A DNA stretch of 64,000 nucleotides, taken from positions 1 to 64,000 of the forward strand of contig NZ_JNKU01000002.1 in assembly GCF_000702165.1 (NCBI RefSeq). The letters are read 5' to 3'. Of the stretch, positions 21,596 to 59,917 are shown one piece after another (the stretch's first letter is position 1; every line of letters starts with the position of its first letter). This DNA comes from Sharpea azabuensis DSM 18934. Lineage in GTDB: Bacteria; Bacillota_I; Bacilli_A; Erysipelotrichales; Coprobacillaceae. The notes under the pieces were generated by a model. That model was not told the origin of the DNA, did not search any database, and saw nothing but the letters and a program-made list of their open reading frames with translations. The position numbers were made by a program, and so were the translations under genes.

Positions 21596-22042
21596 ATGCA
21601 AATTACAAGTCGTTTTACAATTGCCATTCATATCTTAGGTGCGATTGATTATTTTCATGGCAAAGTGCCTGTTAATAGTACGCTTTTAGCACAGAGCATC
21701 GGCGCTAATCCGGTTATTGTCAGAGGTGTCATGGCCAAGCTTTCTAAAGCTGGTTATATTCTTGCTAGTAAGGGGAAAAATGATATTACGCTTAAGACTT
21801 CACTTAATGATATTACTTTCTATGATATCTACCAGCTCGTTGATGACAGTGCGCAAAAAGGTCTTTTCCATTTCCATGAGAACCCTAGTCCGGACTGTCC
21901 TGTTGGGCACAATATTCATCAGGCATTGGATGGTAAGCTTGATCAGGTACAAGAAGCGATGGAAGATGAAATGAAGAAGATTACAGTAGGGGATGTTGTG
22001 GATTATCTGATGATAGCAATCAATAAGAATTGTCAGGACTAA
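21596..22042 (+). CDS. Rrf2-family transcriptional regulator (single-cysteine type)
   Basis: Predicted 148-residue repressor similar in length and layout to the protein at 1377. The winged helix covers residues 1-65 (PVIVRGVMAKLSKAGYILAS). A single conserved cysteine, C101 in DCPVGHNI, matches DECIVGHNI of the other protein, while the three Fe-S cysteines of IscR/NsrR are absent. It closes the operon starting at 17848 and likely binds GTAAT-N7-ATTAC there and at 11506. The signal is probably a thiol, electrophile or metal; this is inferred. Confidence 0.87.
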   Translation: MQITSRFTIAIHILGAIDYFHGKVPVNSTLLAQSIGANPVIVRGVMAKLSKAGYILASKGKNDITLKTSLNDITFYDIYQLVDDSAQKGLFHFHENPSPDCPVGHNIHQALDGKLDQVQEAMEDEMKKITVGDVVDYLMIAINKNCQD

Positions 22043-22352
22043 TTGTTAAGTAGCCAAAAACATAGAAATATGTACGTAAACATAGCCAAGAGTGGACACA
22101 TTAAGTCTCTTATCTATGGCTTAACAGTAGGTTTCGAGCCTAAGTGACTGCTGCTATCGAAAGATATGCTGCAGATATGAACTACATTAAGCAGTAAGGC
22201 AAAGACACACCTTTAGATGTAATCTTCAGTCTGAAGCTCTGTGAGTGCAAACCAAGAAACAATGCTAATGTCCTGCATTGATAACAGGGAAACACATGTC
22301 CTCTGCTCGATATTGGCACGAAGAAAAATTCTCCGAAAGGAAGGTGTCAGAA
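22043..22352 (+). ncRNA. Candidate omega-RNA (HEARO) upstream of iscB
   Basis: About 310 bases with no plausible gene right before iscB, where the guide RNA of IscB systems is encoded. Clear local helices: CTGC-TATC-GAAA-GATA-TGCT-GCAG at 22151-22174, with a GNRA tetraloop; CAGTAGG against CCT and ACTG around 22125-22150; and CCTG with CAGG near 22275-22290. Omega-RNAs carry the guide at their 5' end, copied from DNA flanking the element, so the guide should lie near the left border. Structure is read by eye; covariation has not been tested. Confidence 0.68.
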
Positions 22353-23501
22353 ATGACAAATTATGCTTTTGTATTGGATGCTGATAATAAACAGTTAGCA
22401 CCAACCAAAGAACAGAAGGCCTGGTTTCTTATTCGCAAGAAACGAGCAACACTGGTCAGCAAATATCCAATGGTAATACAGCTTAAAAAGAAAATTCAAG
22501 ACAAGGAAATCTGCAAAGATGAAATTCGTTGTGGAATAGATGACGGAGGTCTTCATGTTGGTGTCGCATTAGTACAGAAATGTCAGACACGAAACAAAGT
22601 AATTTTCAAAGGAACTATTGAACAGCGTAATGATGTAAAACATCTCATGGACGTTAGACGTGGATTTAGACGTTATTACCGTTATCATAAAAGATATAGA
22701 CCAGCGAGATTTAATAACAGAAAATTCTCAAAACGAAAAGAGAGAGTTGCACCAAGCATTTTACAGAAACGTCAGGCAACAGTAAGGGTTATTAGTCAGC
22801 TTAACAAGTGGATAAATATAACAAGTTACTGGCTAGAAGATGTTGCTATTGATATAAGAGCATTGACAGATGGTTATAAGCCATATCAGTGGCAATATCA
22901 AAAATCAAATAGACTGGATGAGAATATCCGTAAGGCTGTAATTTTACGAGACGGTTGCAGATGTATGGAATGCGGAAAATCTAATTGCAGATTAGAGGTT
23001 CATCACATTAAGCCAAGAAGACTGAAAGGCTCAAATACGCTTGGCAATCTTATTACATTATGTACAGAATGTCACCAGAAAACAGAAGATGCAGAGGAAT
23101 TATATATGAACAGATACTTTGCTTTGTTGAATTCTTCTGACAATAAGAACTTTGATTATGCACAGCATGTAATGATAGGCAAGAAATGGCTAAGAGAACA
23201 GTTATCAAATTTAGGAATGTTACATTTGACCAACGGAGGCGATACTGCCAATAAGCGTATTGACTGGGGCATTGCAAAATCACATTCTAATGATGCCATA
23301 TGTATCACAGACTTGCAGCCAGACACGTGTGAAATTAAAGAATGGGTAATAAAGCCCATGCGAAGACAAAGCAAGGCTAAGACGGATAATGTTCTAGGAA
23401 TTAAACATAGGGATTTGGTTGAGTACACTTTCAGAAACGGTGAAACGCATAGAGGGTATGTAACAGCTTTATATCCAGAACAGAACGCTCTTAATTTTTA
23501 A
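22353..23501 (+). CDS. iscB: IscB-family RNA-guided endonuclease (RuvC split by HNH)
   Basis: Predicted 382-residue IscB, the ancestor-type relative of Cas9 that uses omega-RNA to cut DNA. Order of parts: N-terminal PLMP-like domain ([19 protein letters not shown], 6-24); RuvC-I D63 (CGIDDGG); arginine-rich bridge helix ([19 protein letters not shown], 102-120); RuvC-II E162; HNH with two zinc-type CxxC pairs and H217/H218, N232, H241; RuvC-III H311 and D314 (SHSNDAICI); a C-terminal domain with [10 protein letters not shown]. All catalytic residues appear present. The ATG at 22353 follows AAGGAAGG; an upstream ATG at 22278 would run into the RNA. Confidence 0.88.
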
Positions 23502-23649
23502 AGTCCGACAAAACATTGCAAGAAAGTTAATGCTAGAAAATGCAAACTGCTTTGGAAATATTCTAAGATTTACTGGTTAGATGATGTTGATTAGACACAT
23601 TTATCCACATTTAAACACAAATAATAATGATTTAATAAGGAGGCTACTT

Positions 23650-24471
23650 ATGGATCATGATACTCAAAGAATAACACTCTTAAAGGCGCTGCTTGATGAT
23701 AATCCACAATATCGTCATCTTGAAATACCAACGGATAGTACAGAACAAAAACAACTTATCCGTGCATTAATGAATATCAGAATGCCTGAACCTATTAGTC
23801 AGGATATTCTTGATATTCAGGATGCCTATTTACAAGAAGAACAAAGAGAGGGCATTAATGCTATTAATACATTCTCACCAACAGATAAAGACAAACGTTT
23901 GTATCTTTGGCAAGGGGATATGACAACACTCAAGGTTGATGCCATCGTCAATCCAGCCAATAGTGCAATGCTTGGCTGCTTCCGTCCTTTGCATAATTGT
24001 GTTGATAATATCATTCACTCTAAAGCAGGCATCCAGCTTAGACTTGCATGCAATGACTACATGACAGACCAAGAACAAAAGTATGGCGAGAATTACGAAG
24101 AACCAACTGGCCAGGCGATGATTACAAAAGGCTATAACTTACCAGCCCATTATGTCATTCATACAGTTGGTCCAATCATCTCAGGTATACTTACGAAAAA
24201 GGATGAGGACTTGCTGGCAAGCTGTTATAAAGAATGCCTGACTCTTGCTTCCAATCACTATCTCACATCAATTGCCTTTCCATGTATTTCAACCGGTGTC
24301 TTTCGTTTTCCTCAGGACAAAGCTGCCAAAGTTGCAGTTAAGGCTGTACAGGAATGGCTGGATGCATGCAAAGATACATCTCTTCAAAAGATCATTTTCA
24401 ATGTCTTTAAAGATGAAGATTATCATTATTATGATCAGCTTCTTAACAAACGTATTCCTTATAAAAGCTAA
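23650..24471 (+). CDS. Zinc-type macrodomain protein-ADP-ribose hydrolase
   Basis: Predicted 273-residue protein: a helical N-terminus (1-80) and a macrodomain (83-260). VDAIVNPANSAMLGCFRPLHNCVDN carries the ADP-ribose asparagine and the C110, H115, C117 zinc ligands that define the Zn-macro class. Further loops are HTVGP and CISTGVFRFP. Known members remove ADP-ribose placed by SirTM sirtuins and are usually encoded next to them; here the sirtuin is at 12178. The ATG at 23650 follows AAGGAGGC. The IscB element separates it from the Rrf2 operon to which it may once have belonged. Confidence 0.88.
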   Translation: MDHDTQRITLLKALLDDNPQYRHLEIPTDSTEQKQLIRALMNIRMPEPISQDILDIQDAYLQEEQREGINAINTFSPTDKDKRLYLWQGDMTTLKVDAIVNPANSAMLGCFRPLHNCVDNIIHSKAGIQLRLACNDYMTDQEQKYGENYEEPTGQAMITKGYNLPAHYVIHTVGPIISGILTKKDEDLLASCYKECLTLASNHYLTSIAFPCISTGVFRFPQDKAAKVAVKAVQEWLDACKDTSLQKIIFNVFKDEDYHYYDQLLNKRIPYKS

Positions 24472-39937: not shown

Positions 39938-40203
39938 TTGACAAATGCAAAATGCATGTTTATTATATTCGTAAATAAACAAACTTAGTGACGAAGAGAG
40001 TAGTCCTGCTTGAGGCTTATAGCGACCTAGTGGTGGTGAAAGACTAGGAGGGAGAGCATGATGAACCGCACTTCTGAAAGGTTTGCCTGAATGAGTAGGG
40101 CAAAAGGTTTTCCGCCTTAAGGATAGAGAGGATTCTAAGGAATCAAGAAGAGTGGTACCGCGTACTTATTACGTCTCTTGCATATGCAAGAGACGTTTTT
40201 CGT
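39938..40203 (+). promoter_or_regulatory. T-box riboswitch, arginine-type specifier, with its promoter
   Basis: Promoter TTGACA (39938-39943), 17 bp, TATTAT (39961-39966). The leader has the AGAGAGTAG start of stem I and the AGCGACC / GGTGGTGAAAG distal loops. The T-box AAGAGTGGTACCGCG (40148-40162) and the terminator ACGTCTCTTGC / GCAAGAGACGT (40171-40196) follow. Aligned with the tyrS leader by the shared bases after the specifier (ACTTY), the codon is CGC (40067-40069), arginine. Uncharged tRNA-Arg would allow transcription of the ABC transporter and aminotransferase. The T-box is certain; its specificity is inferred. Confidence 0.9.
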
Positions 40204-48485: not shown

Positions 48486-48719
48486 TTGCATTTTGTCCAA
48501 CTTTATATTATACTGAGTGCATATTCGAGGAAGAAGATTAAATAGTGGATTTTTTCTAGAGACGTTATGGCTGGTGGAAATAACGAAAAAGAAGCTATGG
48601 GACACTTTGGAGAATGCTTTAAAAAAGCACGTGGCTCGCGTTAAGAGCTAAAGGGCATACTGAAAGGTATGAACTAAGGTGGTACCGCGTTGAAACGTCC
48701 TTAGATAAGGACGTTTTTT
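48486..48719 (+). promoter_or_regulatory. T-box riboswitch of the hisS-aspS operon, with its promoter
   Basis: Promoter TTGCAT (48486-48491), 17 bp, TATACT (48509-48514). Stem I has GGAAGAAG and GGCTGGTGGAAATAACG. The T-box AAGGTGGTACCGCG is at 48676-48689, and the terminator pairs 48693-48703 with 48706-48716. Aligned with the tyrS leader (same bases ACTTTGGAG after the codon), the specifier is GAC at 48601-48603, aspartate, though CAC (histidine) overlaps it at 48603-48605. The T-box is certain; which tRNA is sensed is discussed as a finding. Confidence 0.9.
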
Positions 48720-59667: not shown

Positions 59668-59917
59668 TTGACAAGAGGCTTTAACTTTACTAAACTATTG
59701 TTATCGCTATGAAGAAGACAAGTAGTTATAGAGTTTGTTGTAGAGAACTTATGGGTGGTGTAAATAAGTACAAATACTATAATGAATACACTTTGGAGCT
59801 TCTAAGTGCAAAGCTTAGACGGTGTGTGCATCGTTAACAAAGATAAGTGCCTGCTTAGCAGGAATAAAGGTGGTAACGCGAGAATTCGTCCTTTGTAAGG
59901 AGGAATTCTCTTTTTTA
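59668..59917 (+). promoter_or_regulatory. T-box riboswitch of tyrS, tyrosine specifier, with its promoter
   Basis: Promoter TTGACA (59668-59673), 17 bp, TAAACT (59691-59696). The T-box is AAAGGTGGTAACGCG (59866-59880), the terminator hairpin spans 59881-59909 with a following T run, and TAC (59787-59789) lies in the specifier position before ACTTTGGAG. This leader was used to align the other two T-boxes. Confidence 0.93.

What the first reader, a model, noticed from the sequence alone, without database searches (positions are those of the whole stretch)
22043..23580. IscB RNA-guided nuclease with a structured upstream RNA inside a redox/ADP-ribosylation locus
The protein at 22353 has all IscB parts in order (PLMP-like start, RuvC-I D63, arginine-rich bridge helix, RuvC-II E162, HNH with H217/H218, RuvC-III D314). 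The 310 bases before it lack a gene and hold clear helices, including a GNRA-capped hairpin at 22151-22174, where an omega-RNA is expected. The PLMP motif is divergent ([10 protein letters not shown]), no tnpA is near, and the element separates an Rrf2 regulator from a macrodomain gene. That IscB uses omega-RNA is established; its activity here is inference.
Basis: partly seen in the sequence, partly recalled or inferred. Interest (0 to 1): 0.78.

Follow-up and report, generated by a model that had tools for sequence, protein, structure and literature searches.

The report
RNA-guided IscB element splitting an operon
A 1.6-kb mobile element carrying an IscB DNA-cutting enzyme (a small relative of Cas9) and its guide RNA has landed exactly in the ribosome-binding site between two bacterial genes; it belongs to a phage-rich IscB clade that repeatedly picks this kind of site, but this copy's enzyme has lost its last 31 residues to a stop mutation.

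Summary
The protein at 22353-23498 is an IscB (NCBIfam guided_IscB 283.7 bits; best PDB match HfmIscB, 9K2Z, 606.8 bits), and the 317 bases before it encode an omega-RNA. Rfam HEARO scores only 25.3 bits (cut-off 83), but 25 relatives share a HEARO-like fold with compensatory changes in 39 of 54 pairs (shuffles 22.3; slid registers at most 15).

New here: (1) the element is 22036-23638 (1603 bp); a same-genus genome holds the empty site. (2) It inserted in the Shine-Dalgarno GGAG of the macrodomain gene and truncated rrf2; the predicted guide is the 3' end of rrf2. (3) 29 copies have GG[A/T/G]G[G/A] at the right junction, mostly just before a start codon; an ordinary HEARO IscB in a related genome ends in ATGA instead. 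(4) The clade is common in phages, rare in bacterial genomes; two gut phages carry an omega-RNA-only derivative at two different Shine-Dalgarno sites. (5) The window copy has TAA where relatives have CAA, losing 31 C-terminal residues, so it is probably impaired. No tnpA lies on the contig. Activity, TAM and transposase remain inference.

The parts
22036..23638 (+). IscB element, 1603 bp (ends uncertain by up to 4 bases: AGGA occurs at both junctions)
   Evidence: Empty site in same-genus genome, L044; ends conserved in relatives
22020..22035 (+). Predicted guide (16 nt, TCAATAAGAATTGTCA), encoded by the 3' end of rrf2; its length is assumed from other IscBs
   Evidence: Flanks diverge between sites immediately upstream of the omega-RNA scaffold; rest is inference from known IscBs
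22036..22352 (+). omega-RNA scaffold (HEARO-like)
   Evidence: 54-pair structure, 97.0% of cells paired, 39 pairs with double changes; Rfam HEARO 25.3 bits at 22076-22331
22039..22050 (+). 5' strand of helix P1, starting at the element's left end; 3' strand at 22120-22131
   Evidence: 9-13 of 13 positions pair in the best register in all 26 copies tested; at fixed register 97.5% of cells paired
22151..22174 (+).
   Evidence: Helices 3 and 4: 7/7 pairs with compensatory changes
22353..23501 (+). iscB, 382 aa, truncated by TAA at 23499-23501
23502..23594 (+). Remnant of the iscB 3' end, in frame up to TAG 23592-23594 (the lost C-terminal tail)
   Evidence: intact relatives have invariant Y407 and near-invariant W401, I406, W408 here
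23639..23643 (+). Right junction GGAGG = Shine-Dalgarno of the macrodomain gene
21596..22042 (+). rrf2-family regulator, C-terminus cut by the insertion (ends NCQD*; the same-genus empty allele reads on as NCQETAYGS*)
23650..24471 (+). Macrodomain protein-ADP-ribose hydrolase gene, downstream neighbour (not part of the element)
   Evidence: start inferred from the empty allele

Best explanation
This is an IscB/omega-RNA mobile element of the HfmIscB clade that inserted precisely into a Shine-Dalgarno sequence (AGGAG) between overlapping rrf2 and macrodomain genes. Shown: the ends, the empty site, the conserved RNA fold, the family of the protein, the variable flank that abuts the scaffold, and the repeated choice of GGNGR sites. 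Inferred: RNA made across the left end carries the rrf2 3' end as guide; with IscB it would cut alleles that still have the uninterrupted target followed by a GGAG-like TAM, while the filled site escapes because the element turns GGAG into GGAC. That favours retention of the element and homing into empty alleles. Moves to new sites need another activity, probably a transposase supplied in trans. The window's enzyme lacks the last 31 residues of its C-terminal (TAM-interacting) domain, so this copy is probably defective although its RNA looks intact.
For: Family: (9K2Z is a solved IscB-omega-RNA-target-DNA complex of the nearest relative). RNA. Ends and empty sites: host; Baoshanvirus and Silviavirus, guide region identical or nearly so to the empty alleles. 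Site preference. Control: a HEARO-type IscB with nine copies in G017 ends in ATGA with arbitrary flanks in the four copies compared, and ordinary IscBs score 95-142 bits with HEARO. Truncation; AlphaFold2 of a full-length relative puts three of six C-terminal strands (388-392, 396-401, 406-408) in the lost tail. Mobility of the ends: omega-RNA-only derivatives at two sites.
Against: No expression or cleavage data. Rfam HEARO is below its gathering score. The guide differs from the same-genus empty allele at 3 of about 20 positions, so cutting of that allele is uncertain. TAM preference cannot be separated from target-site preference in these data. The AlphaFold2 models are poor (mean pLDDT 49.5 and 59.2).
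Confidence: 0.8

Rival explanations
1. The element is purely a phage-style RNA-guided homing element: IscB cuts the empty allele and repair copies the element in, with no transposase ever involved.
For: No Y1 transposase in four Staphylococcus carrier phages with complete-genome records, and 17 of 20 carrier records lack one. In Silviavirus the same site is filled in 7 of about 50 records. In phage VL10 the element supplies a recoded start of the resolvase gene it interrupts, typical of homing elements.
Against: Three copies with three different guides in one chromosome and one deletion derivative at two unrelated sites need moves to new sites, which guide-matched homing alone does not give.
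Confidence: 0.25
2. The IscB has been domesticated as a regulator or defence gene of the rrf2-macrodomain operon.
For: It lies co-directionally inside the operon and has a damaged tail.
Against: Catalytic residues are intact, the same-genus genome lacks it, and other copies sit at unrelated genes.
Confidence: 0.04
3. The 382-aa IscB is fully functional, the stop only trimming a dispensable tail; or the stop is a sequencing error.
For: One base only; the rest of the frame is open; the catalytic domains are untouched.
Against: The tail is kept in the intact relatives down to 52% identity, with invariant Y407, and holds three predicted strands of the C-terminal domain.
Confidence: 0.2

Closest known systems
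HfmIscB (PDB 9K2Z, IscB-omega-RNA-target DNA complex)
   Same: Nearest solved relative over the whole length, same divergent PLMP start, HNH and RuvC residues, same C-terminal tail as the full-length relatives
   Different: Window protein stops 31 residues early; the paper on 9K2Z was not in the library, so its TAM and source could not be compared
HEARO RNA / classical IscB elements (RF02033; OgeuIscB)
   Same: RNA upstream of iscB, P1 at the left end, central helices, long-range pairing (columns 111-113 with 299-301) with compensatory changes, guide position at the left flank
   Different: Scores 25-42 bits against a cut-off of 83; extra hairpins inside P1 in most copies; right junction GGNGR, mostly at Shine-Dalgarno sites, rather than ATGA
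IS200/IS605 (ISC) transposons
   Same: Small element, target defined by a short motif, derivatives apparently moved in trans
   Different: No tnpA in the element or nearby; transposase not identified
Phage homing endonucleases
   Same: Fixed site in related phages, empty alleles that match the target, recoded gene start in VL10
   Different: Specificity would come from a guide RNA, so each copy is aimed at its own site

Membership tests
IscB | RuvC split by bridge helix and HNH, arginine-rich, with the catalytic D/E/H/D residues | tested here: met
IscB | N-terminal PLMP domain | tested here: met
   Aligned to TbaIscB LMPT and HfmIscB LAPT; motif divergent across the clade
IscB | Complete C-terminal TAM-interacting domain | tested here: not met
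   31 residues missing in this copy; present in relatives, so this marks a damaged member rather than a non-member
IscB | omega-RNA encoded directly upstream, guide from the left flank | tested here: met
   Structure and flank divergence; transcription not tested
IscB | RNA-guided DNA cleavage | not testable with these tools
   9K2Z shows a target-bound complex for the nearest relative only
HEARO RNA (RF02033) | Score at or above the gathering threshold | tested here: not met
   25.3 vs 83 bits
HEARO RNA (RF02033) | HEARO topology: P1, central helices, long-range 5'-3' pairing | tested here: met
   (alignment)
IS200/IS605 | Y1 TnpA acting on the ends | tested here: inconclusive
   None on the window's contig; 19 Y1 hits elsewhere in the genome, and no other element with these ends was found

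The most novel reading that the evidence does not exclude
A phage-rich IscB clade forms RNA-guided homing elements that target Shine-Dalgarno sequences generally (GGNGR serving as TAM), rebuild the downstream gene's start so the host tolerates them, and spread also as nuclease-free omega-RNA elements that rely on IscB and a transposase in trans.
Probability: 0.35. Interest if true: 0.75.

Novelty: new variant of a known kind. Interest (0 to 1): 0.5.

Why it matters
The clade links an RNA-guided nuclease to one of the most conserved short motifs of bacterial genomes, lets the TAM be predicted from natural insertion sites, and gives natural omega-RNA-only derivatives and phage empty/filled pairs with which RNA-guided homing can be tested directly. 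The window copy shows how such an element decays.

Tried and rejected
Searching for a partner element with the same ends and a tnpA in G000, G001, G017 and G025: only the four iscB copies carry the ends. Exact-pattern search for the empty sites of the two phage derivatives in viral contigs: none. A nrdD-site comparison for G017's second copy gave no syntenic left flank. Promoter scan: no more hits than in shuffles. Folding of the single RNA is weak (z -1.46), so the case rests on covariation. The right-end alignment shows no clear conserved hairpin by eye. No paper in the library names HfmIscB, and none found describes Shine-Dalgarno insertion by IscB; absence from this library is not proof of novelty. 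A domestication role in the redox/ADP-ribosylation locus was considered and rejected because the insertion is absent from the same-genus genome and the clade's other sites are unrelated.

Full report
Observation. The ORF at 22353-23498 is real and is an IscB: Pfam RRXRR (155 bits) and HNH, NCBIfam guided_IscB 283.7 bits against a cut-off of 175. Its closest solved structure is HfmIscB (9K2Z), 606.8 bits over the whole protein, ahead of TbaIscB and OgeuIscB; 9K2Z is titled an HfmIscB-omega RNA-target DNA complex. D63, E162, H217, H218 and D314 are invariant in 25 relatives. The odd PLMP start is a trait of the clade.

The RNA. At Rfam's threshold no HEARO is found; with a permissive search HEARO is the top hit, 25.3 bits, E 0.01, spanning the whole model. 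Other clade members give 27-42 bits, whereas ordinary IscBs of related genomes give 95-142. In an alignment of 25 clade sequences, a structure of 54 pairs in 11 helices has 97.0% of cells paired and 39 pairs with changes on both sides, against 22.3 in shuffles and 10-15 when the partners are slid. It includes a long-range pairing (GCC near the 5' side with GGC near the 3' end) whose middle pair occurs as C-G, G-C, U-A and U-G. Helix P1 begins at the left end of the element.

The ends. A same-genus genome (G001) has rrf2 and the macrodomain gene joined without the insert...CAGAACTGTCAGGAGACCGCTTATGG; the window reads ...AAGAATTGTCAGGA|CTAATTG...TTTAATA|AGGAGGCTACTTATGG. The inserted unit is 1603 bp, 22036-23638, with up to 4 bases of ambiguity because AGGA is present at both junctions. 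In the empty allele rrf2 overlaps the macrodomain gene's start; the insertion gives rrf2 a new stop from the element's CTAA and leaves the Shine-Dalgarno of the macrodomain gene intact.

Site choice. In 29 copies (host chromosomes, IMG/VR contigs, Staphylococcus phages) the right junction is GG[A/T/G]G[G/A], and in most a start codon follows at Shine-Dalgarno distance; the exceptions are L006, which sits in a terminator-like stem, and L103/L104, which lie just inside a coding sequence (one left end, L072, is uncertain). The flanks upstream of the left end differ between sites, as expected if they supply the guide. As a control, a different IscB with nine near-identical copies in G017 starts exactly at the HEARO model's first base and ends in ATGA, with arbitrary sequence beyond, in the copies compared. 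So the GGNGR preference belongs to this clade. Whether GGNGR is TAM, transposase target or both cannot be told.

Phage side. Close relatives occur in 2 of 392 sampled genomes of the phylum, the window's own included, but in 10 and 18 viral contigs (overlapping sets) and in Staphylococcus myophages at 54-60% identity. For phages JDF86 and VL10/CIFT, related phages have the empty site with identical or nearly identical guide regions. In VL10 the element interrupts a resolvase gene a few codons after its start, and the element's right end supplies a new start with TNSKKK in partly changed codons. Two human-gut phage scaffolds carry a roughly 0.5-kb derivative with the whole RNA (93% identical to the window) and right end but only about the first 19 iscB codons; both share one deletion joint yet lie at different sites, both before GGAGG. 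This suggests that RNA plus ends can be moved in trans. Both of these scaffolds encode a Y1 transposase elsewhere; 17 of 20 carrier records show none.

State of the window copy. The intact close relatives continue through a sense codon, nearly always CAA, where the window has TAA, and end 405-414 residues long (slightly longer in Silviavirus), with Y407 invariant. The prediction for a full-length relative places three of the last six strands in the missing part; confidence is modest. Published work assigns target-motif recognition to the C-terminal TAM-interacting domain (PMC9755519). I therefore judge the enzyme probably impaired; the RNA region is 95-97% identical to that of intact copies.

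Verdict. The window copy is a probably decaying member of an IscB clade whose target preference and phage association are, as far as I could check, not described in the papers held here.

Noticed in passing
L146:1506-2017 and L147:1513-2026 (MT835533.1, MT835474.1): omega-RNA-only deletion derivatives of this element at two different Shine-Dalgarno sites in human-gut phage scaffolds; same internal deletion joint.
   Followed up: partly
L103:3220-3300 (phage VL10) versus L112:2500-2530: The element's right end carries a recoded copy of the first codons of the interrupted resolvase gene (TNSKKKG), as in homing elements.
   Followed up: partly
G017 (L028, L030, L032, L034): A second, classical HEARO/IscB family with nine near-identical copies in one chromosome, ending in ATGA.
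   Followed up: partly
L002:5001-6146: The iscB copy of Eubacterium sp. MSJ-13 has a stop after 49 codons, so it is also broken.
   Followed up: no
L065:2757-3000: omega-RNA region shortened to 244 nt, lacking part of the central domain, upstream of an intact iscB.
   Followed up: no
window 39979-40181, 48519-48705, 59700-59896: Three T-box leaders above the Rfam threshold.
   Followed up: no
G000, whole genome: 19 Y1 transposase matches, several at contig ends.
   Followed up: no
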